A program made the position numbers and the translations under genes. 64,000 bases of DNA, from NCBI GenBank assembly GCA_021647785.1, contig JAKIUC010000019.1, positions 1-64,000 of the forward strand, given 5' to 3'. This stretch comes from Melioribacteraceae bacterium (GTDB lineage Bacteria; Bacteroidota; Ignavibacteria; Ignavibacteriales; Melioribacteraceae). This document shows positions 10,210-38,038 of the stretch, piece after piece. Within the stretch, counting starts at the first letter, position 1. Every line of letters starts with the position of its first letter. The notes under the pieces were generated by a model. That model did not search any database. It saw nothing but the letters and a program-made list of their open reading frames with translations, and was not told where the DNA came from.

Positions 10210-10247
10210 GGATTTGGAGATTTTATAATTTGGAAATTTGAGGATTT
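10208..10247. repeat. Five-unit 8-base-period array at the polA stop codon
   Basis: The units are gaggattt, ggagattt, tataattt, ggaaattt and gaggattt: each is eight bases and ends in ATTT. The first unit overlaps the polA stop codon (TGA at 10207-10209). Other arrays of the same period but different sequence occur at 17108-17190 and 35529-35604. Confidence 0.6.
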
Positions 10248-10362
10248 AAAATAATTTTTTGAGACTACTAATCGCTCTTAAATTTTCATTAGATGAAGGC
10301 TTAGCATAACCTACGCCCCTTACGAGTTGTTGGTAAATACCATTAAATAATCTAACACACGA

Positions 10363-10390
10363 AACTCGTAACTCGAAACCCGTACCCCGC
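10363..10390. repeat. Four-unit heptamer array
   Basis: Four successive 7-base units, AACTCGT, AACTCGA, AACCCGT and ACCCCGC, form a degenerate tandem array in the short gap between polA and the small lipoprotein gene. It recalls the short tandem heptanucleotide repeats described in cyanobacteria, but relatedness is not implied. Confidence 0.5.
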
Positions 10391-10411
10391 AATGCTATTA
10401 CAATTAATAAT

Positions 10412-10702
10412 TTATTTCTCATCCTTTTTTCTAAAGAACGATAACCCGCCAAAACCACTAATTATTGCCATGTAAAAACCAAAATCGTACCACCAGCCAG
10501 TATTGTGAATTTCGTAAACTCTAATTTCTGAATTAAAAAAGCCCATAAAAAGGGATACTGGTGCAATCCACCCATGCCAAATACCCATAAAAAATCCGGC
10601 AGGGTCATCAAAACTACTTGCACCACTACCTGGAGTGCACGATGTAAAAACAAGAATTAATAATAGAATAAGGATAGGATAAACTATTTTTCTTCTATTC
10701 AT
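10412..10702 (-). CDS. Small lipoprotein with membrane segment, function unknown
   Basis: A 96-residue protein with a type II signal peptide: a charged start (MNRRK), a hydrophobic stretch and the lipobox VFTSC with lipidated Cys at about 22. The mature part is rich in Gly, Trp and Phe, with a second hydrophobic segment (about 72-90, FGFYMAIISGFGGLSFF) and a basic tail RKKDEK. The pattern suggests a small membrane-anchored protein seen as hypothetical in related genomes. It follows ptsI by 11 bases and could be the last gene of that operon; a link to the PTS proteins is only positional. Confidence 0.65.
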   Translation of the reverse strand: MNRRKIVYPILILLLILVFTSCTPGSGASSFDDPAGFFMGIWHGWIAPVSLFMGFFNSEIRVYEIHNTGWWYDFGFYMAIISGFGGLSFFRKKDEK

Positions 10703-10713
10703 AACAGACCTAA

Positions 10714-12474
10714 TTAATTTGAATAAAATTCATTTGAAGATTCACTAAAATTATCAGAATAAAATTTATCTAATTTGTCATGAATTTCTTTTTCAGTTTT
10801 GCATTTTAAACACTGACTTACAAAAACAGATATTTCAGAATAATTTAGTGACCTAATAATTTTTTTAGCATGTGGAATTACAGAACCACTCACACTTATC
10901 GAGTCAAGTCCTAATCCTACCAATAGTGGAATAGCTTTATAATCAGCAGCCATCTCACCACAAAGGCTAACTTTAGTTTTAGTCTTCTTTGCTTCGTTAA
11001 TTATAAAATTTAGTGTTCTTATCACTGCCGGATGAAATCCTTGATATTGGTTTGTAACAATATCGTTTCCTCTATCCACTGCAAGCAAATATTGAATTAA
11101 ATCATTAGTACCAATGCTGAAAAAATCGACATCTTCCGCAAATTCTTTTATCATTAAAGCTGCTGATGGTACTTCAATCATAATCCCTAATTCTAAATGT
11201 TCATCAAAAGGAATTTTTTCTAATATTAGTTCAGCCATACATTTTGCAATTAGTTCTTTCGTTAATTCTATCTCACTAACTGACGAAACCATAGGTATCA
11301 TAAATTTAATATTTTTATGAATACTAGATTTTAACACAGCTCGTATTTGTGTTCTAAAAAGTTCTTCATTATCCAATAGAAATCTTATGCCTCGCCAACC
11401 TAACATTGGGTTTGGCTCTTGTACATCAACAGGAAGAACTTTATCGCCCCCAATATCAAATGCTCTAATTGTTAAAGGAAGCGGATAGAGTTTTTCTGCA
11501 TAATTAGAATAAACCTCTGACTGTTCATCCTCGCTGGGGAAAGAATCATACTCCTGAAATATTTGCTCGGTACGCATTAAGCCAACACCTTCGGCACCAT
11601 TCTGTATTATTAATTCAATTTCCTCATTCAGGTCAAGGTTTGCAAGAATATCAATTTTCTTTCCATCCAATGTTTCTGCTGGTAAATCTCTTAACTTTGC
11701 TAACTCAATATTTACAACTTCAAGTTTTTTTAATTTTCTTTGGTAATGCAAAAGTTGTTCATCATCCGGATTTACAATAACAATTCCATTAAATCCATCA
11801 ATAATTACTTTATCAGAATTTTTAATATTTTCGGTTGCATCATGAAGCCCAACAATGGCGGGTACATTAAGCGAACGAGCAACAATTGCAGCGTGTGATG
11901 TTAATCCGCCAAAATTTGTAATATATCCTGTAACATTCATTCTTGAAAAAAGTACAGTATCAGCAGGCGTAAGTGAATTTGAAACAAGAATAACCTCGCC
12001 AGTTGATATTCTTGATTTCCATTTTTTCTTCCGAATATTTCTGATTATTCTGTTCTTAATATCTTCGATATCCTGCGAACGCTCCCTCATATACTGCTCG
12101 TGAGAAAGAGTCATAATATCTTGATATTTAGAAATCTCATCATTAACAATAAACTCCGAGTTCTTTTTCTCAGCCCTAATTCTATCTATAATCCGATTAA
12201 CTAAAACTGGATCATCAAGAATCATTATTTGTGCTTCAAAAAGAGCCGCACGTTTTCTACCAAGTTTATCTACTGCAAGACTAAAAACCTTTGCCAACTC
12301 TTTTTTCGATTTTGCAAGTGCCTCAGTAAAATTACCAATTGCTTCGTCAACATTTGTTATTGCTTCATCAGTAACTTTTTCAATCTCTTTTTTGAATAAA
12401 AAAGCATTTGCAATTTTAATACCGGGTGCAGCCGGAATTCCTTTGTAAACATTTTCTTTTTCTAAATCAATCAT
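10714..12474 (-). CDS. ptsI: Phosphoenolpyruvate-protein phosphotransferase (enzyme I)
   Basis: The 586-residue product is a standard PTS enzyme I, which takes phosphate from PEP and passes it to HPr. The phosphohistidine motif is GGLTSHAAIVARS (His at about 194). The PEP-binding barrel has MRTEQIF, GWRGIRF, GTNDLIQYLLAVDRGN and SLCGEMAAD with the active Cys near 500. Its start codon overlaps the ptsH stop by four bases. No EII permease is present in the window, so a role in regulation rather than sugar import is possible. Confidence 0.95.
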   Translation of the reverse strand: MIDLEKENVYKGIPAAPGIKIANAFLFKKEIEKVTDEAITNVDEAIGNFTEALAKSKKELAKVFSLAVDKLGRKRAALFEAQIMILDDPVLVNRIIDRIRAEKKNSEFIVNDEISKYQDIMTLSHEQYMRERSQDIEDIKNRIIRNIRKKKWKSRISTGEVILVSNSLTPADTVLFSRMNVTGYITNFGGLTSHAAIVARSLNVPAIVGLHDATENIKNSDKVIIDGFNGIVIVNPDDEQLLHYQRKLKKLEVVNIELAKLRDLPAETLDGKKIDILANLDLNEEIELIIQNGAEGVGLMRTEQIFQEYDSFPSEDEQSEVYSNYAEKLYPLPLTIRAFDIGGDKVLPVDVQEPNPMLGWRGIRFLLDNEELFRTQIRAVLKSSIHKNIKFMIPMVSSVSEIELTKELIAKCMAELILEKIPFDEHLELGIMIEVPSAALMIKEFAEDVDFFSIGTNDLIQYLLAVDRGNDIVTNQYQGFHPAVIRTLNFIINEAKKTKTKVSLCGEMAADYKAIPLLVGLGLDSISVSGSVIPHAKKIIRSLNYSEISVFVSQCLKCKTEKEIHDKLDKFYSDNFSESSNEFYSN

Positions 12475-12737
12475 AATTCATCAAAGCCTTTATTGAAATA
12501 CTCCGTAATTGCTTCTGCCATTTCCACTTCATCAGGTCCATCAAAAGTTAAAGTTAACTCTGAACCCTTTGCAGCGGCAAGGGTCATAACTCCTATTATA
12601 CTTTTTCCATTGATATCTAAATCATCTTTAAGTATAAAAAATTCTGACTTAAACTGTGCAGCAATTTTTACAATTGTTGCTGCCGGACGTGTATGCAGAC
12701 CTGCATTATTTATAATTGTAATTCTTTTTTCTACCAT
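12471..12737 (-). CDS. ptsH: Phosphocarrier protein HPr
   Basis: An 88-residue HPr. His15 in AGLHTRPA is the residue phosphorylated by enzyme I. Ser46 in NGKSIIGVMTLAA matches the site that HPr kinase/phosphorylase modifies in other bacteria, so HPr may also act as a regulator here (inference; the kinase gene is not in view). The gene shares one base with the prenyl synthase stop and overlaps ptsI by four, making it part of one tightly coupled transcript with isoprenoid genes. Confidence 0.95.
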   Translation of the reverse strand: MVEKRITIINNAGLHTRPAATIVKIAAQFKSEFFILKDDLDINGKSIIGVMTLAAAKGSELTLTFDGPDEVEMAEAITEYFNKGFDEL

Positions 12738-27600: not shown

Positions 27601-28517
27601 ATGCTATTACTTTGTCAGGTGGTACTTGGCCTGCAGAAGGTAGTAACGCAAACCTTGATATGACAGATGGATACCTTGAAACAAGAGTAAGAATAGATAA
27701 AGACCTAGATTTAGATGGTCAACCTGAACCTGTATGGCCAGTCAATGTTATTGTTGTAGGTGCTCAATATTCAAGCAGTTCATCTGTTGTCAATGATGGA
27801 TATCAATATTTTCCAAGAATGTATAGTGACTTTGAACAAAATGTTGCAGCTCCACCATCACCTTATTTCTTCTTTACTGAGGAAACTGCTGCCTTAGATG
27901 GAGGAGAATATGAAATTACTAATGTTGATGAAGATTATTCATTAGTGTGGCATCCTGCTGTTGATTTAAATGGTGAAGCTCTAATATATCAAGTTGTTGG
28001 AATTAATGAAGGTAATGAAATTCTTTTAACTTCTTCTGATAATAATGCTGTAGATACCGTCTATTCTCAAACTGGACAAGATGTTATTGATATTATATTA
28101 GCTAATAGTAGTGATAATATGTTAGAAATTTCATACACTATTCGGACTGTTAGTTCAAATCCTGCAGAAGGTATTATTTCAAGTGTTGATACCATTACTG
28201 TAACTTTTAAAGATATGGTAACAGATATTAATGATAGAAATATTATTCCAAAAGAATTCTTTGTTGATCAAAACTATCCTAACCCGTTCAACCCAACAAC
28301 AACTATTAAATTTGGATTACCTGTTCAGGCTGAAGTTAATTTGATTATTTATGATATTTTAGGACGTGAAGTTACAAGATTAGTAAATAGTAAAGTTATG
28401 AGTGCAGGTGTTTATCAATATTCGTTTGATGCAGGGAGACTTGCTAGTGGAACTTATATTTATAGATTGCAAGCTGATAAGAAAGTAGAAGTTAAGAAAA
28501 TGCTTTTGCTAAAATAG
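24669..28517 (+). CDS. Large secreted FG-GAP/VCBS repeat protein with T9SS sorting domain
   Basis: A 1282-residue secreted protein: signal peptide to about 21, then many FG-GAP-like repeats with calcium-type loops (DFDGDGKTEMY, DLDGDGKPEV, DVDGDGNDEI, DIDGDGNIDLV). Residues of about 28-210 and 235-420 are a tandem duplication (both with QNTWP, GDG and SETWT landmarks). An OB-like DUF5689-type domain follows at about 870-1045 (VTMGIVTSLNFSSSGYLTTI), and the T9SS sorting domain starts with VDQNYPNPFNPTTTIKF. GGAGG at 24657-24661 suits ATG 24669 better than ATG 24666. Likely an adhesin or surface-binding protein; the ligand is unknown. Confidence 0.87.
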   Translation: MKLKTTLILLTLLISTSLVAQDLFVRSAVIPIPVADQNLGIGNVLAGVDFDGDGKTEMYFVNDMWDQAGEVYTPRMYKYELNGTSWDSVWSAALPRTQNTWPGLAQADLDGDGKPEVIWTPAEGSRTPSPARIYVFEAPGDGSDNMGVDDGAGGWKANTEWNFDLPDGASMRAIKIVVADFDGDGKQEVALADRKSYFSMAIVSVSDVPDDANGSETWTLEFNGKDVQANEFIRNGEIASPDGGFGNAVAGMDYDGDGLIEMYAVNNNWVDGAGGELIPTLFKYEYVAGAWIKKWETIVNYIPAQNTWPILLAGDWDNDGKGEIIWTPINNLDATTNPNPDRILVYEFPGDSTSDAMGIDNGDGTWNPNAAWNFDVPDMTEMRPFGAVLTDVDSDGTDEFVFAERKEYYGWGVVSVSDIPDLGDGSETWTMEANGTSDNSGSNYRDVLVDENIIYVFDWNGDIQSIEATGSSYDSLKTQNIGSSWVFRGANVTDLDNDGITEFIVNDYGGSGSKSIWVLQKDADSLVATAIVDFSANTASRITTVRVGNIDSDSLAEFIVGFRQTDEVYKVDYLGGDITDPANYTTSLLDKGIIGEDGKGQIDIIVLANIDGDDADEVMYAGPPRSFDANALDMGSGDFGDWSIGSSNWDVVTVNTEDAVVAVSMNLSGDIYPVFYHPDSSKYKFGHFQSGIIGGNGNFLSASSGDVDGDGNDEIFMGEYWGSAKVYMLMVNENGAAEAHMIADLSLLGATRLTGGAAGDIDGDGNIDLVFGTRDGSPWNSVYRVKYMGGDPTDINSWGSELIDSGILASGGQIDIVQLANVDNDADLEVIYSGVPRGDGYLPIVVLDLQKVSAEAIAGVKIDSDGDGVPDRLGEQVVTMGIVTSLNFSSSGYLTTIQDESAAIHLWSSGDTLSNYNIGDRVQVSGEVAQFRGLTEIYTTPEDILFLGTATTPEPMVVTIADLQADPEKYESMLLKINAITLSGGTWPAEGSNANLDMTDGYLETRVRIDKDLDLDGQPEPVWPVNVIVVGAQYSSSSSVVNDGYQYFPRMYSDFEQNVAAPPSPYFFFTEETAALDGGEYEITNVDEDYSLVWHPAVDLNGEALIYQVVGINEGNEILLTSSDNNAVDTVYSQTGQDVIDIILANSSDNMLEISYTIRTVSSNPAEGIISSVDTITVTFKDMVTDINDRNIIPKEFFVDQNYPNPFNPTTTIKFGLPVQAEVNLIIYDILGREVTRLVNSKVMSAGVYQYSFDAGRLASGTYIYRLQADKKVEVKKMLLLK

Positions 28518-28530
28518 TATATTTTAGGAG

Positions 28531-28627
28531 AGTCCCTTTGGGATTGCTGTTAAAATAATCAAGCGAAGCGAAGTATTATTTTAACACAATCCCGTGCTTT
28601 TTACGGGATTGCTGTTGAAATAATACA
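28531..28627. repeat. Composite repeat: direct and inverted copies of GGGATTGCTGTTAAAATAAT
   Basis: The unit occurs at 28540-28559 and again, slightly changed, from about 28605 to 28624, with an inverted copy (ATTATTTTAACACAATCCC) at about 28575-28593 between them. An inner hairpin AATCCCGT/ACGGGATT spans 28588-28610. A related unit (cgggactgttcttaaataat) lies at about 38640-38659. Confidence 0.55.
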
Positions 28628-28646
28628 ATAATCATTTTCAAATTTT

Positions 28647-28674
28647 AAGCCCGGTTTTGTCCGGGCTTTTTTTA
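28647..28674 (+). terminator. Intrinsic terminator after the large T9SS gene
   Basis: AAGCCCGG at 28647-28654 pairs with CCGGGCTT at 28661-28668 around a TTTTGT loop, followed by a run of T. It is the first strong terminator after the stop at 28517. Confidence 0.85.
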
Positions 28675-28837
28675 TCCCATCATCTAAAAACCCAACTTCT
28701 GGAATTAGATTTAAATTATAACAAACTAAATTTTTCTAAAACTGCAGGAACAGTGGTATGTTAGTAATTTATAATGTGTGTTGATTAAAGAGCCGCAAAA
28801 CGGTTATATGTTCTTTTGTTTGTTTCAAAGGGAATAT

Positions 28838-28995
28838 GTCTCCCGCACGGTGGGATTGTTTTATTTGGGTTTTGTATATTTGCATATCGCTGCGATGCAG
28901 CTATTTTACAAAGAGCCAATCTTGGCTATAGGTCTCTTGCCATTATCCACCTTTACGGATTTCAGTTCAATTATTTTCCTACCACTATAAATCGT
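28838..28995. repeat. Train of four small diversified hairpins between genes
   Basis: In the 28518-29205 gap, beyond the terminator, are four short stem-loops in series: near 28838 (CCCGCACGGTGGG, imperfect), near 28881 (GCATATCGCTGCGATGC), near 28916 (AGCCAATCTTGGCT, perfect) and near 28943 (ATCCACCTTTACGGAT). They end in a segment (cattatcc...caattatttt...ccactataaat, 28938-28991) that is repeated in diverged form at 35156-35208. No gene is supported here. Confidence 0.5.
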
Positions 28996-29135
28996 CTATA
29001 ACCATTATTTAAATACGTTTTCAGTCATTACTATTCAATATCAACACAGTACTTTGTTTTTCTGAATAACTATACAATTGTTACACATAGTGTAACATAT
29101 ACTAATATGAGTTATCTAATTTTTAAATATACTAA

Positions 29136-29167
29136 TTTGTGTCTTGTTTTAAATTGTAGTATTTTTG
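29136..29167 (+). promoter_or_regulatory. Bacteroidetes-type promoter for the lysine operon
   Basis: TTTG at 29136-29139 and TATTTTTG at 29160-29167, spaced by 20 bases, match the known -33 TTTG / -7 TAnnTTTG consensus used by the Bacteroidetes main sigma factor. Transcription would start near 29174, giving a leader of about 30 bases before lysW. No attenuator or riboswitch is visible in so short a leader. Confidence 0.55.
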
Positions 29168-29205
29168 CAGTTCAATTTTTTGTAAAAAAGAAGTAGGATA
29201 AAATA

Positions 29206-29370
29206 ATGGCAGAATGTCCAGTATGTGGTGCTGAAATTGAAAAAGCATCAGACACAGTTCTTGGTGAGCTTTTAGAATGCTCTGATTGTGGTACTGAATT
29301 AGAAGTAACAAATCTTGACCCTTTCCAAGTTGAGGAAGCACCTCAAGAAGAAGAAGATTGGGGCGAGTAG
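29206..29370 (+). CDS. lysW: LysW amino-group carrier protein
   Basis: A 54-residue acidic protein. Cys4, Cys7, Cys25 and Cys28 (CPVC...CSDC) form a zinc ribbon, and the C-terminus is EDWGE, the hallmark of LysW: the gamma-carboxyl of the last Glu is joined to the amino group of alpha-aminoadipate, which stays attached while it is converted to lysine. It opens the operon lysW-lysS-lysX-lysY-amidohydrolase-lysZ-lysJ. The stop codon is one base from the next gene's GTG start, suggesting coupled translation. The match is to the whole known family pattern. Confidence 0.95.
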   Translation: MAECPVCGAEIEKASDTVLGELLECSDCGTELEVTNLDPFQVEEAPQEEEDWGE

Positions 29371-29371
29371 C

Positions 29372-30541
29372 GTGCTTCAAGTTCTTGATTCGACATTACG
29401 AGAAGGTGAGCAAACGCCCGGAGTCTATTTTGACAAGCATATAAAACTTGCAATTGCAAAAATGTTAGATGACATTGGTGTGGGTATAATTGAAACTGGT
29501 CATCCGTCAGTTACAAAAGAAATTCATGATTCAGTACAGTTAATTGCTCATGGTGGATTTAATGCTACAATAGGTGCACATGCCCGCTCATTAAAAAGCG
29601 ATGTTGAACTTGCACTTAATTGTGGTGTTGATTTTATTGGAATTTTCTATTGTGTTTCTGATGATAGATTGAGTACAGTTTTTAAAAAGGACTTAGACCA
29701 AGCTATTACTCAAATTACAGATGTTATTAAATTTGCTAAAAGTGTAAATCATGAAATAATAATTCGCTACACTCCAGAGGACACGGTACGTTCAGAGTTT
29801 AGCAATGTTGTAGCTGCTTCTGTGGCTGCTGTTAAAGCTGGTGCGGATGTTATTAGTGTTGCCGATACTACTGGCTATATGATTCCTGGTACAGATAGAA
29901 GTATGTACGATTATGTTTCCAAATTAAAATCTGAATTAAACTCACGTGGTCTCCATCCTAAAATTGCTGTTCATTGTCATAACGACCGTGGTTTCGCACT
30001 TGCTAATGCAATTGGTGCGTACCGTGCTGGTGCAGAAATAATTGACGCATCTGTGCTGGGACTTGGCGAACGTGCCGGCATTGTTGATTTAGCTCAATTG
30101 CTGGTTGTGCTTTCAGCAGATTTTGGATTGGATAAGTGGAAGTTAGATAAGTTAGATGAACTGTACCAATTTGTGAGTGAGCATTCAGGAGTTCCAATAC
30201 CACGCAACTATCCTATTGTTGGCAAGCATGCCTTTACACACTGTGCAGGTGTTCATACCCACGCCGCAGCTATAAATCCCACACATTACGAAAGTTTAAA
30301 CCCTGAACTTATTGGAAAAGAGCGTTCATTCTCTCTTGACCAAATGTCAGGCATTGCATCCTTACAACATGCATTATCACTTACTAACGAGAGTGAATTA
30401 TCTGAGGAACTTCAACGTGAAGTTTTATCGGAAGTAAAAAACATTGGACAAAAAGGGAAAGCAGTTGAACTAACTGAACTTCCGCACATTGTTCATTACA
30501 TAAAGCAAAACTATAAGCATAAGAAGAAGAAATCTAAATAA
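29372..30541 (+). CDS. lysS: Homocitrate synthase
   Basis: A 389-residue DRE-TIM metallolyase that should condense acetyl-CoA with 2-oxoglutarate, the first step of the aminoadipate route. It has VLDSTLREGEQTPGVYF with the catalytic Arg, IETGHPSV, ADTTGYM, the metal site HCHNDRGFALAN, and HAFTHCAGVHTHA near 290. Isopropylmalate synthases are close relatives; the choice rests on position between lysW and lysX. GTG at 29372 is the natural start, just after the lysW stop; an earlier in-frame start would lie within lysW. Confidence 0.88.
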   Translation: MLQVLDSTLREGEQTPGVYFDKHIKLAIAKMLDDIGVGIIETGHPSVTKEIHDSVQLIAHGGFNATIGAHARSLKSDVELALNCGVDFIGIFYCVSDDRLSTVFKKDLDQAITQITDVIKFAKSVNHEIIIRYTPEDTVRSEFSNVVAASVAAVKAGADVISVADTTGYMIPGTDRSMYDYVSKLKSELNSRGLHPKIAVHCHNDRGFALANAIGAYRAGAEIIDASVLGLGERAGIVDLAQLLVVLSADFGLDKWKLDKLDELYQFVSEHSGVPIPRNYPIVGKHAFTHCAGVHTHAAAINPTHYESLNPELIGKERSFSLDQMSGIASLQHALSLTNESELSEELQREVLSEVKNIGQKGKAVELTELPHIVHYIKQNYKHKKKKSK

Positions 30542-30615
30542 TTTTATTTAGTATTTTTCTAATATCTGCATTTTAATATTCCCATAAAAGAAAGAACTAA
30601 ATCAAGGAGAAAACC

Positions 30616-31467
30616 ATGAGAGTTGGATTTTTACATTCACTAATACGAAAAGATGAAAAACTTCTAATAGAAGAATTTAATAAAAGAGACGATGTTGAGT
30701 TAGTTATGATGGATGACCGAAAGCTAAAGTTTGATTTGAAGAATAGTCAATTTAATATTGATGTTTTGATTGAACGGTCTATAAATCACTCCAGAGCTTT
30801 GCACGCTATTAAACTACTTGAAAGTGCTGGTGTAAAGTGTGTTAACACATTTGAAGTTGCAACAATTTGCGGAGATAAGCTTTTAACCTCATCAGCATTG
30901 CAGGATAACAATATTCCTCAACCAGATGTAAAAGTAGCCTTCACCGAAACTTCTGCTCTCGAAGCAATTGAGGAGATGGGTTATCCGGTTGTGCTTAAAC
31001 CAGCAGTTGGTTCTTGGGGCAGATTACTTTCAAAAATTAATGATAGAGATGCGGCTGAATCAATTCTTGAACATAAAACTGTGCTTGGTACATATCACCA
31101 TTCCATTTTTTATATTCAAAAATATGTTGATAAAAAAGATGGAAGAGATATTCGCAGCTTTGTTGTGGGTGATACTTGCATTGCAGCTATTTATCGCGGC
31201 TCGGAACATTGGATAACAAACACAGCAAAAGGTGCAGTTGCATCAAAGTGTGAAGTAACAAAAGAGATTGCCGATATCTCTATTGCTGCTGCAAAAGCTG
31301 TTGGCGGAGGTGTTGTTGCAATAGATCTCTTTGAAACAAAAGAGAACAAGTTAATGGTAAATGAAGTAAACTATACAATGGAATTTAAAAACAGCATTGC
31401 TACTACTGGTGTTGATATTCCGAAACTTGTGGTAGATTATATATTAAAAATTGGAAGGAGTAATTAA
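30616..31467 (+). CDS. lysX: LysW-aminoadipate ligase LysX (ATP-grasp)
   Basis: A 283-residue RimK-type ATP-grasp ligase that joins aminoadipate to the C-terminal Glu of LysW. Motifs are [68 protein letters not shown] and the LysX/ArgX signature [13 protein letters not shown] near the C-terminus. An AAGGAGA ribosome site precedes the ATG. The related ArgX acts on glutamate; with a single copy here, action on both substrates cannot be excluded. Confidence 0.95.
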
Positions 31468-32514
31468 ATGAGTAAAATTAGTGTCTCAATTATTGGAGCC
31501 TCTGGCTATACGGGTGGCGAGTTATTGCGGCTTTTACTTTTCCATCCTGATATTGAAGTGAAACAAATTACATCCAGTTCATACTACGGAAAGCTTGCGT
31601 ACAAAGCACATCCAAATTTAAGAAAAGTTACATCTTTGAAATTTTGCAGTATTGATGAACTTGAGAAAGTGGATGCTCTATTTCTCTGTACTCCACACGG
31701 AGAATCGATGAAAAGAATAGATGAGTTTAAAGAACTTGCAGATAAAGTTATTGACCTAAGTGGTGATTTCAGATTAAACGATGTTGCTGATTTTGAAAAA
31801 TGGTACAACCAGCCGCACTTAAATCCAAAGATGCTGCAGAGTTTTGTTTACGGAATTCCTGAACTTCACCGAAATGAAATGAAAGATGCTCACTTCATTT
31901 CAAGTGCCGGATGCAATGCAACCACCACTATACTTGGACTTTATCCACTTTACAAAAATGGATTAGTCGAAATTGATAGAACAGTAGTTGAAGTAAAAGT
32001 TGGGTCAAGTGAGGGTGGTAAAAAATCATCCTTTGCTACACATCATCCGGAGCGGAGTGGTGCTATGCGGTCATACAAACCAACTGCCCATAGGCATACT
32101 GCTGAAATAATTCAGGAACTCTCTTTTGATGAAAAAATTGAGATTCATTTTTCAGCTACATCTGTAGATATGATAAGAGGAACGTTGGCTACAAGTCATG
32201 TTTTCTTAAAAGAGAATTTAGCCGAAAAAGATATCTGGAAAGTTTACCGAAAAGCGTATGGTAACGAACCATTTATCAGAATCATTAAAGAGAGGGAAGG
32301 TAATTATCGCTACCCAGAACCTAAACTTTGCATAGGAACTAACTACTGTGATATTGGTTTTGAAAAGGACCCGCATTCAAATCGCCTTGTGGTTATTAGT
32401 GCAATAGATAATTTGATGAAGGGTGCTGCGGGGCAGGCATTGCAGGCGTTCAATATTATGTATGGCTTAGATGAAACAACTGGGCTTGAGTTTCCGGGAC
32501 TTCATCCTATTTAA
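31468..32514 (+). CDS. lysY: LysW-aminoadipate semialdehyde-forming reductase LysY
   Basis: A 348-residue member of the ArgC/LysY family that reduces the LysW-bound acyl phosphate to the semialdehyde with NADPH. It has the Rossmann start VSIIGASGYTGGELLRLLL, LCTPHGESM, VIDLSGDFRL, catalytic Cys149 in SSAGCNATTT, and KVGSSEGGKKSSFATHHPERSGAMR. It starts right after the lysX stop with a GGAAGGAG ribosome site. ArgC has the same fold; the operon decides the call. Confidence 0.93.
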   Translation: MSKISVSIIGASGYTGGELLRLLLFHPDIEVKQITSSSYYGKLAYKAHPNLRKVTSLKFCSIDELEKVDALFLCTPHGESMKRIDEFKELADKVIDLSGDFRLNDVADFEKWYNQPHLNPKMLQSFVYGIPELHRNEMKDAHFISSAGCNATTTILGLYPLYKNGLVEIDRTVVEVKVGSSEGGKKSSFATHHPERSGAMRSYKPTAHRHTAEIIQELSFDEKIEIHFSATSVDMIRGTLATSHVFLKENLAEKDIWKVYRKAYGNEPFIRIIKEREGNYRYPEPKLCIGTNYCDIGFEKDPHSNRLVVISAIDNLMKGAAGQALQAFNIMYGLDETTGLEFPGLHPI

Positions 32515-32525
32515 CGGAGGATTAA

Positions 32526-33164
32526 ATGTGCAGATTATTATTTGTGCAAAATAAAAATAACTTTCTCATTAGCGAGCATCTATTAAAGTTTGCTTCAATA
32601 GCCAAGAATAGCAAGGAATATCAAGGGCATGGCTGGGGTTGCAGTTATCTATTAGATGGTAATTGGGTTCACTATAAAAATATAAAACCAATTTGGGAAG
32701 ATGATATTAAAGAGTTTGGGAAAACAAAAAGGCTAATAGTTCACGCCCGCAGTGCTTTTGAGGATAGAGATATTGTGGTTGAAAACAATATGCCGTTTTA
32801 TGATAATAAATATATCTTCATATTTAATGGTGAACTGCGTAGAGTGAAAATAAAAGCTGATGGAAGAATTGGAGCAGAAAAAATATTCAATTTTATTAAA
32901 CGCTTTGATAAAGATGGAATGGAGAATGCACTTTCTAAGGGTGTTGATATTATTAAAAAGAAATCGGCATACGTTAGAGCAATGAATATTATCATTGCAG
33001 AAATAGATAAAGTACACTACTCTTCCCTATTCAATGAGGATGCAGAGTATTTCCAAATGTATTTCAAACAGAGTAAGAATGAATTGATAATCTGTTCAGA
33101 AATATATCCTAACGAAACAGGCTGGAATAAAATTGAAAATAAATCGAATGGAGTTTTTAAATGA
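32526..33164 (+). CDS. EgtC/YafJ-like class II glutamine amidotransferase-fold hydrolase
   Basis: A 212-residue Ntn hydrolase embedded between lysY and lysZ. Removal of Met exposes Cys2 (MCRLLF), the nucleophile of this fold. Other landmarks are YQGHGWGCSYL, IVHARSAF, NNMPFYDNKYIFIFNGEL and GRIGAEKIF, in the order found in YafJ and EgtC. No synthetase or ammonia-using domain is attached. EgtC uses this fold to cut a gamma-glutamyl bond. LysW-lysine is also a gamma-glutamyl amide and no lysK is present, so a lysine-releasing role is a reasonable hypothesis. GGAGG precedes the ATG; it overlaps lysZ by four bases (ATGA). Confidence 0.8.
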   Translation: MCRLLFVQNKNNFLISEHLLKFASIAKNSKEYQGHGWGCSYLLDGNWVHYKNIKPIWEDDIKEFGKTKRLIVHARSAFEDRDIVVENNMPFYDNKYIFIFNGELRRVKIKADGRIGAEKIFNFIKRFDKDGMENALSKGVDIIKKKSAYVRAMNIIIAEIDKVHYSSLFNEDAEYFQMYFKQSKNELIICSEIYPNETGWNKIENKSNGVFK

Positions 33165-33952
33165 CGATAATAAAAATTGGTGGTGGTGAACAAATTAACT
33201 TGGAATCAATTATTAAAGACTTAATTAATTTGGATGATGATTTTATAATTGTTCACGGAGCAAATGCTTTGCGTGATGAGTTGGCAAAAAAACTGGATTA
33301 CGAAAAACAAGTTCTCGTTTCAGCATCGGGTTACTCTTCTGTTTTTAGTGATGAGGAGGCTCTCGATATTATGCTTATGTCTTACTCTGGATTGCGTAAC
33401 AAGCGCATTGTTGAAATGTGTCAGCAAGCAGGAATTAATGCAATAGGCTTAACCGGACTTGATGGAAAACTAATTGAAGGGAAACGGAACCGCGGCATAA
33501 GAGTAAAGGAAGATGGTAAGCTAAGAATGGTGAGAGATTTTTCTGGCAAACCAAAAACCATCAATGTCGATTTGTTGAAATTACTGATTGATAATGGATA
33601 TGTCCCAATTCTAACTGTTCCAATAATTGATGAAAACAATTTTGCAATCAGTTCAGAGAATGATGATATAGTTGCATTGTTAAAACATTCATTGAATGCT
33701 GATAGAGTAATTCAACTTATTGAAGCACCTGGATTTTTGGATGATGCGAACAATCCGGATTCTGTTGTAAAAAACATCTCTCGAACAGAACTTGGAAAAC
33801 GTGAGGCACAAGTTGATGGAAGAATGAAAAGAAAAATGAAAGCACTAATTAAACTATTTGAAAGCGGCAGCACATCTGTTTACATTTGTGATGGACGAAT
33901 TGAAAACCCTATAACAAATGCACTGAATGGTGGAGGAACTTTAATAAAATGA
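33161..33952 (+). CDS. lysZ: LysW-aminoadipate kinase LysZ
   Basis: A 263-residue amino acid kinase of the ArgB/LysZ group that phosphorylates the side-chain carboxyl of LysW-bound aminoadipate. It has IIKIGGGEQINLESI at the N-terminus, FIIVHGANALRDELAKKL, AIGLTGLDGKLIEGK, YVPILTVPII and EAPGFLDDANNPDSV, with a C-terminal basic stretch DGRMKRKMKALIKL. Overlaps of four bases on both sides show tight coupling with the amidohydrolase and lysJ. Confidence 0.93.
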   Translation: MTIIKIGGGEQINLESIIKDLINLDDDFIIVHGANALRDELAKKLDYEKQVLVSASGYSSVFSDEEALDIMLMSYSGLRNKRIVEMCQQAGINAIGLTGLDGKLIEGKRNRGIRVKEDGKLRMVRDFSGKPKTINVDLLKLLIDNGYVPILTVPIIDENNFAISSENDDIVALLKHSLNADRVIQLIEAPGFLDDANNPDSVVKNISRTELGKREAQVDGRMKRKMKALIKLFESGSTSVYICDGRIENPITNALNGGGTLIK

Positions 33953-35103
33953 AAAATTATAAAGAACTAATAGATAATTATGAAGTAGCCGTTTATCCAA
34001 AAAGGGATTTAGTAATTGTAAAAGGGAAAGAAGCAACAGTATGGGATGAAAATGGAAACGAGTTCATTGATTGTGCTGCTGGCATTGGTGTTGCTACAAT
34101 AGGACACTCAAACCCCGCTGTAGTAAAGGCAATAACTGAACAAGCTGAAACGCTAATAACAAATTCGTGTGTTTTCTATAATGATACTCGTGCTTTATTT
34201 TTAGAGAAGTTAAATCAAATTACTCCAGCAAATTTAAAACGTTCATTTCTTACAAACTCCGGAACAGAGGCTATGGAAGCAGCTATTAAATTTGCACGAG
34301 TCTCCACTAATAGAACAGATTTCATAACCACAATGCGCGGTTTCCACGGTAGAACAATGGGAGCTTTAAGCGGAACTCACAAACCAGAATATCGCAAACC
34401 ATTTGAGCCACTTATTCCTGGCTTCTCTTTTGTGCCATATAATAATTTAGAAAAAATGGAAGGAGCAATTACTGAAAAGACTGCAGGAATTATTTTAGAA
34501 GTAATACAAGGGGAGGGTGGAGTAAATATTGCATCGCAAGAATATCTCGATGGAGTTCGTTCACTTTGCAACAAGCACAATGTGTTGATGATTGTTGATG
34601 AAATTCAAACAGGCTTTTGCCGAACCGGAAAAATGTTTGCGATAGAGCATTTTGGAATTGAGCCGGATATTATGACTGTTGCTAAAGGAATTGCTGGGGG
34701 CTTTCCAGTTGGTGCAGCTATCTGTTCGGATAAAGTTAAAATAGGATTTGGACAACACGGAACTACTTTTGGTGGTAATCCCCTTGCGTCCGCTGCTGGT
34801 CTATCTGCAATTAACTTTATGCTTGATAATAATCTTGCGGAGGAGTCTCAAAAAAAAGGTGATTATTTTGTTAGCAAATTAAATACGAGTGAACTTTCAA
34901 AAGTAAGAGCTATAAGACACAAAGGTTTAATGATTGGAATTGAATTGAAAGAAAAAGTTCAACCATATTTAATTAAACTTATGGAGGAAGGAATAATAGC
35001 AATGCCTGCTGGTAAAATTGTACTCCGTTTTCTTCCGCCAGTTGTAATTACATACGAACAATTAGATAAAGTTACAGAAGTGTTGAATAGAATTTTAAAG
35101 TAA
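33949..35103 (+). CDS. lysJ: LysW-lysine aminotransferase LysJ
   Basis: A 384-residue class III PLP aminotransferase of the ArgD/LysJ group that converts the LysW-bound semialdehyde to LysW-lysine. It shows [68 protein letters not shown] and the PLP Lys246 in [15 protein letters not shown]. It is the last gene of the operon. The remaining step, release of lysine from LysW, would need LysK, which is absent here. Confidence 0.93.
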
Positions 35104-35155
35104 GTTTTGTTACTTCATATTTATTTTCTATTGCATAATGGGTTTACGATTCTTA

Positions 35156-35218
35156 CCATTATCCGCAGTGGCGAATCATAGTCCAATTATTTTTATACCC
35201 ACTATAAATTATATAGAG
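35156..35218. repeat. Diverged copy of the 28938-28995 dispersed repeat
   Basis: The stretch cattatccgc...cgaat...agtccaattattttta...cccactataaat...tata follows the same order as the end of the hairpin train at 28938-28995, with substitutions. It starts about 50 bases after the lysJ stop, in a 772-base gap (35104-35875) that holds no intact gene. Confidence 0.5.
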
Positions 35219-35227
35219 CCTTAATTT

Positions 35228-35380
35228 TTAGATAATTTTAGGCTTATCAAATAGAGCTAAAAAATATTCTTTTGACCAGATATCAAGTTCTTTACTATTT
35301 TTAATAAAAGGTAAAACGTCCATTTTGGCTCTGTTAAAATCCAGATTATTTATTGTAGTAGTAAATAATTCTTTTAAATC
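35228..35380 (-). pseudogene. Possible C-terminal remnant of an AbiEii-like nucleotidyltransferase
   Basis: On the minus strand, a 50-codon open stretch ends in a stop at 35228-35230. It reads DLKELFTTTINNLDFNRAKM, then a segment with DVLPFIKNSKELDIWSKEYF, and ends FDKPKII. The pattern DVxPFxxxxxELxxWSxxxFL recalls the C-terminus of AbiEii-type antiphage/toxin nucleotidyltransferases. Upstream, a stop interrupts this frame and the likely continuation (INLIK) is in another frame, so the gene has decayed. The family call is from memory of the pattern only. Confidence 0.35.
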
Positions 35381-35528
35381 TTTTTATCAAATTTATTTGT
35401 TTTATTATAATTCTGCGATTGCACTATTCTACTATATAGTATTTGGTCGCATACTTACACGCGGTACAGGTGTAACATATTTAATTCAAAGGAGTTATAC
35501 TATTTTCATATAACGAATAATAGACAAA

Positions 35529-35618
35529 ATTGTTCTATTGTTTCATTGTTCTATTGTTATTACAAGTTATTATCAACAAGTTAGCAATGGAGCAATAAAA
35601 CAATCCGCCACGGCGGAT
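35529..35618. repeat. 8-base-period arrays joined to a perfect hairpin
   Basis: Four units (attgttct, attgtttc, attgttct, attgttat) at 35529-35560 face an inverted array caatggag, caataaaa, caat at 35585-35604. The second array overlaps the perfect hairpin ATCCGCCACGGCGGAT at 35603-35618. The array design is the same as at 17108-17190. Confidence 0.6.
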
Positions 35619-35875
35619 AGAACATTCATTCTAATAGCTGTAAGTCTTTTGATTCTATTGTATTATGAATAACCGACCAAACACTAAGTACTTTTTTTAT
35701 AAAGACATGAGACTATCCGACCAGACACTAGTTAAGATAACTTATTAATAAATGCAAAACTTTTTATACAAAAAATAGTTATTTAACCTTAAATCACCTT
35801 TCATTTTTAAATTGCACTTCCCCATCAAAGAGATTAATTTAAGATACTATTTTATTGAAATTCTTTGGAGAACTT

Positions 35876-38038
35876 ATGAAGCGTTTAATCCACTTTTTTA
35901 TTGTGGTTCTATCATTCAACTTATTATTAATAGCACAAGACAAAAATTTTACAATGGAGGATGTTGTTTTTAATTCGAGTTCTTCATTGGCTCCAACTAC
36001 TCTTAAGCAATTAGAATGGTTACCCACCGAGTATTCCTACAGCTATATTGAAGAGGATGGTGATAGCAAATGGCTTGCAAAAGGTTATGCAACTTCTGGA
36101 AAAAAAGCTCAGTTGCTTTCTCTCACAGAGTTATCGAATGATTTAGATAATTACGATGTAGAAGCTCCAAAAAAATTCCCTAATGTTACTTGGATAGACG
36201 ACCTAAATTTTTATTTCAAAGAAGATAATAAATTATTTACATATTCTGTTGAAGATAGAGACTTAGAATTAAGAGCCACTTTCCCCAAAGATGCTGAAGG
36301 CATAACCCTATCTGAGGATAAGAGTCAAATAGCTTTCGTAAATGAGAATAATCTTTTTATTGTTTTAAATGAAGAAGAGAATAAACAAATAACTACAGAC
36401 GGCAAATATGGAGTAACAAATGGAATGTCTGTTTCGAGAAGTGAGTTTGGAATTGATGGTGGAATATTTTGGTCTCCGAATAGCAACTACTTAGCTTTCT
36501 ATCACGAAGATTTATCGCATGTTACCGATTATCCGTTGTTAGATATAACCATAACTCCAGCACAGATTGAAAATATTAAATACCCGATGGCAGGAGATAT
36601 TTCACCGGTTGTTTCAATTGGCATTTACAATCTGCGAAAAAAGGATTTAGTGTGGTTGAAAATTGATGGACCCAAAGACCAATATTTAACAAGTGTAACT
36701 TGGGGACCAAACGAAAAATATTTATATGTTGGTCATCTAAACAGAGACCAGAATCATCTGCAACTTGCAAAGTACGATGCCCAAAGTGGTGAAAAAATTA
36801 AAATACTTTTTGAAGAAAAAGATGAGCAATATGTTGAACCGCAACACCAGCTTCACTTTTTACCGAATGACCCAAATAAATTTGTATGGTTTTCGCAAAG
36901 AGATGGCTGGATGCACCTTTACCTTTACAACACAGATGGCGAAATGATAAAGCAGCTTACCAAAGGTGAATGGGTGGTTAAAGACTTTTTAGGATTTGAT
37001 AGAAAACATGAAAACTTTTACATTGTTGCAACATTAGATTCACCAATGGAGAGGCATCTTTATAAAATAGATTTAAAAGATGAAAAATATATTAGAAAGC
37101 TCACTAAAAATATTGGCACACATAAAATTTTGAAACATAGTAGCATGCTCTATTTTATTGATCTGTTTTCAAGTATTACAACGCCAAAAGAGATTAGCAT
37201 TCTCACAGATAAAGGTGATGTTTATGGAATAATTCATAATTCCACAAATCCTATTGTAAGCTATGCTGTTGGTGAAACCAAACTCTTTTCAATAAAAGCT
37301 AATGACGATTCAACTGATTTATTTTGTAGAATAATTTATCCTCCCAATTTTGATAATGAGAAAAAATATCCTGTTATAGTTTATGTTTACGGTGGACCTC
37401 ATGTTCAGTTAGTTAAAAATAGTTGGACACGCGGACGCTATGCATTCTGGTTTAATTATATGGCACAACAAGGTTATATTGTTTTTACCCTTGATAATAG
37501 AGGCTCGCACAACCGTGGTCTGGAGTTTGAGCAAGCTATACACCGTCAATTAGGTACTGTGGAGATTGAAGATCAGATGACTGGGTTGGAATATTTGTAC
37601 TCACTCCCTTATGTAATTCCGGAAAGAGTTGGAGTTTTTGGCTGGAGCTATGGCGGGTTTATGGCAACATCTCTTATGACCCGCACCAATGGGGCTTTTA
37701 AGGTAGGAGTTGCCGGAGGTGCAGTGATAGACTGGAAATATTACGAAGTTATGTACACAGAAAGGTATATGGATACTCCCAAGCAAAACCCTGCTGGATA
37801 TGAAACTGCAAATTTACTGAACCATATTAATAATCTTGATGGCAAATTACTTGAAGTACACGGCACCGTTGACCCAGTTGTTGTTTGGCAGCATACTTTG
37901 CAATTAACTAAAAAAGCTGCAAGTCTTAATGTGCCACTCGATTACTATCCATACCCTGGACATCCGCATCATGTACGAGGAAAGGATGCTCTCCATTTGT
38001 ACAATAAAATTACTAATTATTTTTTGGATAATTTGTAA
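35876..38038 (+). CDS. Secreted dipeptidyl-peptidase IV family protein (S9)
   Basis: A 720-residue serine peptidase with a signal peptide (1-20, MKRLIHFFIVVLSFNLLLIA). The N-terminal two thirds form the DPP IV beta-propeller. The C-terminal alpha/beta hydrolase domain begins near 490 (YPVIVYVYGGPHVQLV) and has catalytic Ser591 in FGWSYGGFM, Asp666 in VHGTVDPVVV and His in PGHPHHVRG near 698. It should cut dipeptides after proline or alanine from peptides outside the cytoplasm. ATG 35876 is preferred for its signal peptide and TGGAG ribosome site. Its 3' end overlaps the opposite gene by 135 bases. Confidence 0.93.
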   Translation: MKRLIHFFIVVLSFNLLLIAQDKNFTMEDVVFNSSSSLAPTTLKQLEWLPTEYSYSYIEEDGDSKWLAKGYATSGKKAQLLSLTELSNDLDNYDVEAPKKFPNVTWIDDLNFYFKEDNKLFTYSVEDRDLELRATFPKDAEGITLSEDKSQIAFVNENNLFIVLNEEENKQITTDGKYGVTNGMSVSRSEFGIDGGIFWSPNSNYLAFYHEDLSHVTDYPLLDITITPAQIENIKYPMAGDISPVVSIGIYNLRKKDLVWLKIDGPKDQYLTSVTWGPNEKYLYVGHLNRDQNHLQLAKYDAQSGEKIKILFEEKDEQYVEPQHQLHFLPNDPNKFVWFSQRDGWMHLYLYNTDGEMIKQLTKGEWVVKDFLGFDRKHENFYIVATLDSPMERHLYKIDLKDEKYIRKLTKNIGTHKILKHSSMLYFIDLFSSITTPKEISILTDKGDVYGIIHNSTNPIVSYAVGETKLFSIKANDDSTDLFCRIIYPPNFDNEKKYPVIVYVYGGPHVQLVKNSWTRGRYAFWFNYMAQQGYIVFTLDNRGSHNRGLEFEQAIHRQLGTVEIEDQMTGLEYLYSLPYVIPERVGVFGWSYGGFMATSLMTRTNGAFKVGVAGGAVIDWKYYEVMYTERYMDTPKQNPAGYETANLLNHINNLDGKLLEVHGTVDPVVVWQHTLQLTKKAASLNVPLDYYPYPGHPHHVRGKDALHLYNKITNYFLDNL

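What the first reader, a model, noticed from the sequence alone, without database searches (positions are those of the whole stretch)
32526..33164. EgtC-like N-terminal-Cys amidohydrolase inside a LysW lysine operon: candidate lysine-releasing enzyme
Seen: a stand-alone class II amidotransferase-fold protein (Cys2, GHGWG, VHARSA, NNMPF...FNGEL) sits between lysY and lysZ, overlapping lysZ by ATGA, with no ammonia-using partner. Known: LysW holds its cargo through the gamma-carboxyl of its last Glu, LysK (M20) normally cuts that bond, and EgtC uses this same fold to cut a gamma-glutamyl amide. Inference: this protein cuts LysW-gamma-lysine and replaces LysK. I know of no description of such a replacement.
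Basis: partly seen in the sequence, partly recalled or inferred. Interest (0 to 1): 0.78.

Follow-up and report, generated by a model that had tools for sequence, protein, structure and literature searches.

The report
Candidate lysine-release enzyme replacing LysK
Some bacteria and archaea that build lysine on a small carrier protein seem to lack the usual metal-dependent enzyme that frees the finished lysine, and carry in the same operon a cysteine enzyme related to EgtC that most likely does the job; this has not been tested at the bench.

Summary
In detail: a 212-residue stand-alone class II amidotransferase-fold protein ("EGC") lies between lysY and lysZ of a LysW operon without lysK. Of 245 class genomes, the 23 with strong EGC matches are exactly the 23 with LysW over cut-off; LysK is over cut-off in none. 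The best 80 of 246 relatives, from Ignavibacteria, Gammaproteobacteria and other phyla to Woesearchaeota, all lie by lysY and/or lysZ. Five of seven archaea seen with the operon have no M20 peptidase. The model matches EgtC (Z 25.1). The Asp that EgtC, GlmS, PurF and YafJ have at the substrate's alpha-amino site (role recalled) is Gly in 103 of 103 EGCs, as expected for a protein C-terminus. LysW tails in EGC operons are Glu (56 of 73) or Gln (17 of 73) only; a Gln tail needs a gamma-amidase first, which suggests a Pup/Dop-like double role. The replacement idea is supported; the chemistry is unproven. Against it: lysA is over cut-off in 13 of the 23, including the window's genome, so lysine need not depend on EGC there.

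The parts
32526..33164 (+). EGC: EgtC-fold stand-alone Ntn amidohydrolase, proposed LysW-gamma-lysine hydrolase (LysK replacement) and LysW-Gln amidase
32529..32531 (+). codon of Cys2, the expected nucleophile after removal of Met1 (by homology)
   Evidence: invariant in 103 of 103
32748..32750 (+). codon of Arg75 in HARSAF, expected to hold the alpha-carboxylate of the gamma-glutamyl group (role recalled from GlmS/PurF)
   Evidence: invariant in 103 of 103
32826..32831 (+). codons of Asn101-Gly102, expected oxyanion hole (role recalled)
   Evidence: invariant in 103 of 103
32871..32873 (+). codon of Gly116, where GlmS (Asp123), PurF (Asp127), YafJ and EgtC (4zfk, TVDSA) have Asp
   Evidence: Gly in 103 of 103; comparators, matched by motif
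29206..29370 (+). lysW, amino-group carrier; here the tail is EDWGE
   Evidence: TIGR01206 over cut-off; sequence
29365..29367 (+). codon GAG of the last LysW residue (Glu), the attachment point; Gln in 17 of 73 distinct EGC operons
29372..30541 (+). hcs, homocitrate-synthase-type gene (GTG start chosen by me; the ORF list gives 29315)
30616..31467 (+). lysX, LysW-aminoadipate ligase (signature [12 protein letters not shown])
31468..32514 (+). lysY, argC-family reductase
33161..33952 (+). lysZ, [LysW]-aminoadipate kinase
   Evidence: NF010659 over cut-off
33949..35103 (+). lysJ, class III aminotransferase

Best explanation
EGC is the release enzyme of a LysW-dependent lysine pathway that has no LysK. 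After LysX, LysZ, LysY and LysJ have built lysine on the gamma-carboxyl of the C-terminal residue of LysW, EGC binds that C-terminal gamma-glutamyl group. Arg75 holds its alpha-carboxylate; the pocket lacks the acid for a free alpha-amino group, because that nitrogen is in the LysW peptide chain. Cys2 attacks the gamma-amide and forms a gamma-glutamyl thioester, which frees lysine; water then regenerates LysW-Glu. The same chemistry would turn a LysW encoded with a C-terminal Gln into the usable Glu form. Shown by computation: operon membership, co-occurrence, absence of LysK over cut-off, fold, residue pattern, Glu/Gln tails. Inferred: the reaction, the thioester and the roles of single residues.
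For: Exact co-occurrence: the same 23 of 245 genomes have EGC (E <= 8.4e-47) and LysW over cut-off. Order lysW-(hcs)-lysX-lysY-EGC-lysZ-lysJ holds in those 23; two are split over contig ends, one lacks hcs at that place. The best 80 of 246 named loci all lie by lysY and/or lysZ. LysK over cut-off: 0 of 245, 0 of 50, 0 of 33 (some genomes occur in more than one call). Of seven archaea seen with the operon, five (picked because they had no TIGR01902 match) have no Peptidase_M20, while 14 of 14 controls ring. In one of them, AR15 (chromosome record CP010425), the operon has lysW, a homocitrate synthase over cut-off, lysT- and lysU-like genes and an isopropylmalate/isohomocitrate-dehydrogenase-type gene, then lysX, lysY, EGC, lysZ, lysJ. 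All 5 LysW genomes over cut-off in a sample of 193 of that phylum have EGC, two of them (G257, G262) known before. Seven of 23 EGC genomes of the class have no lysA match. Model pLDDT 92.9; EgtC 4zfl Z 25.1, rmsd 2.0 over 199 residues. Asp-to-Gly in 103 of 103. Gln tails in 17 of 73 distinct operons, while Glu-to-Ala at the last residue of a LysW homologue gives arginine auxotrophy (PMC10433800, passages).
Against: No biochemical test exists. Of 23 EGC genomes of the class, 13 have lysA over cut-off, among them the window's, and 3 have matches below it, so lysine can have another source there. All 7 EGC bacteria probed have 4 to 10 Peptidase_M20 matches, and M20 scores on the LysK model reach 116 bits in G251 and 117 bits in the archaeon G641, under the cut-off of 163: a divergent LysK is not excluded. 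The window's genome has an ArgE/DapE-type M20 over the TIGR01910 cut-off (L003). In most of the gammaproteobacterial and deltaproteobacterial loci no hcs lies at the operon, so the cargo there may not be lysine. The Gln-tail contrast with M20-type operons is not significant by itself (17 of 73 against 0 of 9, Fisher p 0.19).
Confidence: 0.84

Rival explanations
1. EGC only activates the carrier: it deamidates the C-terminal Gln of LysW to Glu, and another enzyme releases lysine.
For: 17 of 73 distinct LysW tails are Gln, and a class II amidotransferase fold is a natural deamidase.
Against: 56 of 73 operons encode a Glu tail and need no deamidase, yet EGC is present. Five archaea with the operon have no M20, so the known release enzyme is missing there.
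Confidence: 0.07
2. A divergent M20 peptidase elsewhere in each genome is the real LysK, and EGC does something auxiliary such as clearing mis-loaded LysW.
For: Seven EGC bacteria probed hold 4 to 10 M20 matches each; the best TIGR01902 scores reach 101 to 117 bits in some EGC genomes. The window's genome has an ArgE/DapE-family M20 (L003, 250.8 bits on TIGR01910, over its cut-off) of unknown substrate.
Against: None is over the TIGR01902 cut-off. In the window's genome two of the four hits are assigned otherwise (L002 YgeY over cut-off, L005 dipeptidase over cut-off), and L002, L003 and L004 reach the [LysW]-lysine hydrolase model NF003367 at 112, 88 and 59 bits against 363. Five archaea with the operon have no M20.
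Confidence: 0.06
3. EGC is a glutaminase subunit that supplies ammonia to a partner in the operon.
For: The fold is that of class II glutamine amidotransferases.
Against: No step of the operon uses ammonia (pathway knowledge, recalled). The acid at the free alpha-amino site of glutamine in GlmS and PurF (role recalled) is Gly in 103 of 103 EGCs.
Confidence: 0.03

Closest known systems
LysK, [LysW]-lysine hydrolase (M20 metallopeptidase), e.g. Deinococcus plasmid operon L203
   Same: Proposed reaction and place in the pathway: release of lysine from the gamma-carboxyl of the LysW C-terminus; encoded in the same operon.
   Different: Unrelated fold and chemistry: N-terminal Cys instead of metal. 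EGC lies between lysY and lysZ; in L203 the hydrolase gene follows the aminotransferase gene.
EgtC, amidohydrolase of ergothioneine synthesis (PDB 4zfj, 4zfk, 4zfl)
   Same: Fold (Z 25.1, rmsd 2.0, 199 residues), N-terminal Cys2, stand-alone hydrolase of a gamma-glutamyl amide (its substrate is recalled).
   Different: 17% identity; TIGR03442 cut-off failed (40 against 218.65 bits); Gly116 instead of the Asp of the EgtC TVDSA stretch and His35 instead of the Asp of DGWG; lysine operon.
Dop of the Pup system (recalled, not tested here)
   Same: Proposed logic: one enzyme both deamidates a C-terminal Gln carrier and cuts the gamma-glutamyl isopeptide bond that the carrier later forms.
   Different: Dop has a glutamine-synthetase-like fold and acts in protein tagging (recalled); EGC is an Ntn hydrolase in amino acid synthesis.
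Class I GATase/Peptidase C26 proteins in three Streptomyces LysW operons (L251-L253)
   Same: A cysteine gamma-glutamyl hydrolase family in a LysW operon with no M20 annotated in the 20 kb stretch; LysW there ends in Gln.
   Different: Unrelated fold (class I, not class II), other operon content, probably another product. Its role as release enzyme is my inference.

Membership tests
EgtC (TIGR03442) | score over the curated cut-off of the equivalog model | tested here: not met
   40 bits against 218.65; AR15 EGC 55 bits; an actinobacterial EgtC (L270) gives 280
EgtC (TIGR03442) | Asp at the substrate's alpha-amino site (role recalled; present in 4zfk and L270) | tested here: not met
   Gly116 in 103 of 103 EGCs; EgtC 4zfk ...STVDSAILAAL... 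and L270 ...STCDAAW...; matched by motif, not by superposed coordinates
EgtC (TIGR03442) | ergothioneine genes nearby | tested here: not met
   the neighbours are lysine genes
Class II (Ntn) amidotransferase / amidohydrolase fold | fold of the N-terminal nucleophile class II domain | tested here: met
   EgtC Z 25.1, GlmS 1xff Z 20.9, PurF 1ecb Z 20.4
Class II (Ntn) amidotransferase / amidohydrolase fold | Cys at position 2, Arg of the HxR/TRW motif, Asn-Gly | tested here: met
   C2, R75, N101, G102 invariant in 103 of 103
Class II (Ntn) amidotransferase / amidohydrolase fold | Cys exposed as N-terminus after Met removal | not testable with these tools
   needs protein
LysK / M20 [LysW]-lysine hydrolase | M20 metallopeptidase domain, LysK models over cut-off | tested here: not met
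   EGC has no M20 match; TIGR01902 is over cut-off in no EGC genome tested
LysK / M20 [LysW]-lysine hydrolase | hydrolysis of LysW-gamma-lysine | not testable with these tools
   biochemistry needed
LysW-dependent (AAA) lysine operon | LysW, LysX and LysZ over cut-off | tested here: met
   (window)
LysW-dependent (AAA) lysine operon | C-terminal Glu of LysW | tested here: met
   Glu in the window; in distinct EGC operons with a readable LysW Glu 56 of 73, Gln 17 of 73
LysW-dependent (AAA) lysine operon | homoaconitase and homoisocitrate dehydrogenase genes in this genome | not tested
   not searched in G000; lysT/lysU homologues lie in the archaeal stretches L137, L140, L148, L185, L232, L234

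The most novel reading that the evidence does not exclude
EGC is a two-job enzyme with Pup/Dop-like logic in amino acid synthesis: it first matures carriers that are encoded with a C-terminal Gln (LysW-Gln to LysW-Glu), then, each cycle, cuts the gamma-glutamyl isopeptide bond to free lysine. The same solution with a class I cysteine amidase arose separately in Streptomyces LysW operons. Wherever a cysteine amidase replaced the M20 peptidase, Glu and Gln at the carrier tail became interchangeable.
Probability: 0.6. Interest if true: 0.8.

Novelty: new variant of a known kind. Interest (0 to 1): 0.74.

Why it matters
It would fill the missing last step of LysW lysine synthesis in a wide range of mostly uncultured bacteria and archaea whose operons lack lysK. 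It is a clean case of one reaction done by two unrelated folds, metal against N-terminal cysteine, and a second instance (after Pup, recalled) of a carrier that is encoded with Gln and must be deamidated. It can be tested with small soluble proteins.

Tried and rejected
Rejected: chance or misread ORF; EgtC proper; glutaminase subunit (Asp lost); a lysK over cut-off elsewhere in the window's genome (the ORFs were first judged by eye, then scanned).

Weak or dropped rows: G006 (EGC E 9.5e-4, 34% identity over query 24-108, no operon gene found near) was not counted. G222 and G195 have LysW matches below cut-off and no EGC. G222, same genus as the window's genome, keeps on one contig a LysW ending EEDWDE, 26 residues of the lysZ end and a complete lysJ: a gutted operon, and it has lysA over cut-off. 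G195 has only a LysW-like ORF among other genes and no lysA match. Both are LysW-without-EGC cases; no lysX was found in the stretches read. In the archaeal sample G761 and G676 (LysW E about 9e-4, below cut-off) were not counted. For tails, 108 stretches with 94 distinct EGC sequences were held; 21 distinct EGCs without a LysW in the stretch were dropped, leaving 73 (71 with EGC in the stretch, 2 with EGC on another contig). The set of 103 EGCs holds 91 distinct sequences. L209, first used as an EgtC stand-in, is below the TIGR03442 cut-off (203 bits) and nearer to 3mdn than to EgtC; a true EgtC (L270, 280 bits) and 4zfk were read afterwards.

Led nowhere: EGC against plasmids and viral contigs, no match; LysX in viral contigs gave five weak hits, 25-38% identical; Rfam found nothing over gathering score in 28400-35900; net charge of EGC runs from -11 to +10 and supports nothing about LysW binding. 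The sample of 395 genomes of the phylum gave LysW only in genomes already seen. I found no way to draw Deinococcota or Chloroflexota genomes; the LysK-type tail controls are therefore plasmid records only. Of 15 clear LysW places on plasmids (H15-H29) 12 were read; H26-H28, which look like near copies of H25, were not. Of the 9 M20-type LysW two are the same protein (L205, L237). PLSDB gene tables are incomplete. The paper search for the GlmS acid returned none, so its role rests on recall; the numbering Asp123/Asp127 agrees with E. coli sequences. One paper with the word LysW uses the name for a transporter (PMC5584792, passages).

Novelty searches: LysW+LysK, LysW or amino-group carrier protein (40 of 101 papers listed), EgtC+lysine biosynthesis, LysW+Woesearchaeota, aminoadipate pathway/LysW/lysine biosynthesis/carrier protein, Melioribacter+lysine biosynthesis, EDWGE, LysW+amidotransferase. 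No description of such a replacement seen in titles and abstract starts. Only open-licence papers are held; most subscription papers were not searchable.

Full report
What is there. The window (in a 4.25 Mb genome of 99 contigs) holds lysW, a homocitrate-synthase-type gene, lysX, lysY, the gene in question (EGC), lysZ and lysJ, all on the + strand from 29206 to 35103. EGC is 212 residues, begins Met-Cys, starts 11 bases after lysY and overlaps lysZ by ATGA. No lysK lies in the cluster. EGC reaches the EgtC model at 40 bits (cut-off 218.65) and no Pfam family at E 1e-3; 20 of 23 orthologues touch GATase_4 at E 0.01 or better.

Distribution in the class. Three searches, each of 245 genomes of the class, were joined by handle. 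EGC: 24 matches, 23 of them at E 8.4e-47 or better; the 24th (G006, 9.5e-4) has no operon gene near it. LysW: 25 matches, 23 over cut-off, exactly the 23 EGC genomes. LysK model TIGR01902: matches in 196 genomes, over cut-off in none; 4 of 14 controls are over cut-off. The order lysW-(hcs)-lysX-lysY-EGC-lysZ-lysJ holds in the 23; in G215 and G066 it is split over contig ends (in G066 between lysY and EGC), and in G155 hcs is not at that place (with LysW of G029 and G230 placed). The two LysW genomes without EGC are G222 (gutted operon, lysA present) and G195 (a lone LysW-like ORF).

Distribution beyond. One scan of the 84,980 species genomes gave 246 relatives; the best 80 were kept, so two thirds were not examined. 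All 80 have lysY upstream and/or lysZ downstream; in L139, L182 and L183 lysZ-lysJ follow and lysW, lysX and lysY were not found in 8 kb upstream. Record titles name Ignavibacteria, Calditrichota, KSB1, Deltaproteobacteria, Desulfobacterales, Binatia, Gammaproteobacteria (including a Thioglobus and Acidiferrobacteraceae) and Woesearchaeota, besides archaeon AR15 (CP010425). Labels of metagenome bins can be wrong. TIGR01902 is over cut-off in 0 of 50 of these genomes and in 0 of 33 (the other 30 and 3 archaea). In a sample of 193 genomes of the AR15 phylum, 7 have a LysW match, 5 over cut-off, and these 5 have EGC in the operon; two of the five, G257 and G262, were known from the scan. In 395 genomes of the window's phylum LysW occurs only in genomes already seen.

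No M20 at all. Seven archaea with the operon were seen (G255, G257, G262, G288, G609, G641, G695). G609 and G641 have M20 matches below the LysK cut-off (up to 117 bits). The other five, chosen because they had no TIGR01902 match, have no Peptidase_M20 (PF01546) match either, while 14 of 14 controls ring; 6 Ignavibacteria-class genomes and a Caldithrix bin in the same search have 4 to 10 each. Completeness of these archaeal genomes is not told, except that AR15 is a chromosome record. In AR15 the operon runs lysW, homocitrate synthase (TIGR02146 over cut-off), lysT- and lysU-like genes, an isopropylmalate/isohomocitrate dehydrogenase (TIGR02088 over cut-off), lysX, lysY, EGC, lysZ, lysJ. EGC is the one gene of that run without another role, and no M20 is there to take the last step.

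The window genome's own M20s. Of its four TIGR01902 matches, L002 is YgeY (538 bits, over cut-off) and L005 a dipeptidase (608 bits, over). L003 is an ArgE/DapE-family deacylase (TIGR01910 250.8 bits, over 217.6) of unassigned substrate, and L004 is unassigned. On the [LysW]-lysine hydrolase model NF003367 (cut-off 363) L002, L003 and L004 score 112, 88 and 59. So no LysK by model, but L003 stays a possible deacylase for some other or, less likely, this substrate.

Is lysine at stake? lysA (TIGR01048) was sought in 41 chosen genomes. Of the 23 EGC genomes of the class, 7 have no match (G019, G153, G191, G215, G226, G230, G241), 13 are over cut-off, among them the window's genome (473 bits), and 3 have only matches below it (G029, G113, G155). 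So in about a third the LysW operon looks like the only lysine route, while in the window's genome it may be redundant; the gutted operon of G222, which has lysA, fits that. LysX shows the signature NE(V/I)NxT(M/L)E(F/Y) in 95 of 96 sequences read, as in Deinococcus LysX.

Fold and active site. The AlphaFold2 model (23 sequences) has pLDDT 92.9 and pTM 0.91. The best solved matches are EgtC (4zfl, Z 25.1, rmsd 2.0 over 199 residues, 17% identity), then GlmS and PurF domains. Among 103 EGC sequences (91 distinct) Cys2, Arg3, Arg75, Ser76, Asn101 and Gly102 are invariant. Two acids of the relatives are gone. The Asp of GlmS (123, TDTE), PurF (127, SDSE) and YafJ (TDSE), and of EgtC 4zfk (TVDSA) and the EgtC of L270 (TCDAA), is Gly116 in 103 of 103; the neighbouring Glu118 is kept in 102. 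The Asp of EgtC and YafJ in DGWG is His35 in 102 of 103. The alignment program matched YafJ and GlmS at the motif directly; I matched PurF and EgtC by motif, not by superposed coordinates. From recall, not from a paper read here, Asp123/Asp127 binds the free alpha-amino group of glutamine and Arg73 its alpha-carboxylate. A pocket that keeps the Arg and lacks the acid fits a gamma-glutamyl group whose alpha-nitrogen is in a peptide bond and whose alpha-carboxylate is free: the C-terminus of LysW.

The Gln tails. In 73 distinct operons with a readable LysW (108 stretches held, deduplicated by EGC sequence, 21 distinct EGCs without a LysW in the stretch dropped) the tail is EDWGE in 56 and EDWGQ in 17, never anything else. 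On a quick LysX tree of 71 of them the tail changes at least 12 times (3 forced by strongly supported branches; shuffled mean 13.9), so Glu and Gln have swapped repeatedly. Cargo is joined to the gamma-carboxyl of the last Glu, and Glu54Ala in the haloarchaeal homologue ArgW gives arginine auxotrophy (PMC10433800, passages read). A Gln tail should therefore be dead unless something hydrolyses its gamma-amide. An enzyme that cuts LysW-gamma-lysine through a gamma-glutamyl thioester would do that as well. Controls: 9 of 9 LysW from plasmid operons with an M20 gene within the stretch read end in Glu (two are the same protein; in L256 the M20 was found by tblastn with Deinococcus LysK). In 3 of 3 Streptomyces operons where no M20 is annotated but a class I GATase/Peptidase C26 protein is, LysW ends in DWGQ. 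The contrast between EGC type and M20 type alone is not significant (Fisher p 0.19; with the three class I cases added p 0.11); the argument rests on chemistry and on the recurrent swaps.

Prior notice. The Caldithrix abyssi genome paper reports LysWXZYJ and Hcs in one locus and other pathway genes scattered and unresolved (PMC5317091, passages read); I did not read that locus. I saw no description of a replacement enzyme in the listings of eight searches. No NCBIfam model claims the window's EGC over its cut-off.

Verdict. I rate it a new variant of a known pathway.

Noticed in passing
L243/L251, L244/L252, L245/L253 (Streptomyces plasmids): LysW homologues that end in DWGQ, in operons with a LeuA/isopropylmalate-synthase-type gene, RimK-type ligase, argC, acetylglutamate-kinase-type gene and a class I GATase/Peptidase C26 protein, with no M20 annotated in the stretch: a possible second cysteine-type release enzyme.
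   Followed up: partly
L108 (G222, same genus as the window): Gutted LysW operon: a diverged lysW (tail EEDWDE), 26 residues of the lysZ end and a complete lysJ remain; hcs, lysX, lysY and EGC were not found there; lysA is present.
   Followed up: partly
L143, L187, L232, L233: Two lysX-like matches in one EGC operon, possibly ligases for different cargoes.
   Followed up: no
L106 (G058) 8830-12622: Diverged lysY-, lysZ- and lysJ-like matches (34, 26, 40%) directly downstream of the lysine operon, perhaps an argC/argB/argD set.
   Followed up: no
LysX tree (L137, L148, L234 among bacterial rows): Some archaeal operons fall among bacterial ones, which suggests transfer of the EGC-type operon between domains; quick tree, many open forks.
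   Followed up: no
L242 (Staphylococcus epidermidis plasmid) and L241 (Pseudalkalibacillus plasmid): LysW with RimK-type ligase, DegT-type aminotransferase, argC, a large M20 protein and a DXS-N-terminal-type gene: carrier-based operons of unknown product on plasmids of Bacillota.
   Followed up: no
L172 (Thioglobus MED-G25) and most other gammaproteobacterial loci: LysW-X-Y-EGC-Z-J without hcs beside it, in a genome that also has lysA over cut-off (G277): the cargo there is open.
   Followed up: no
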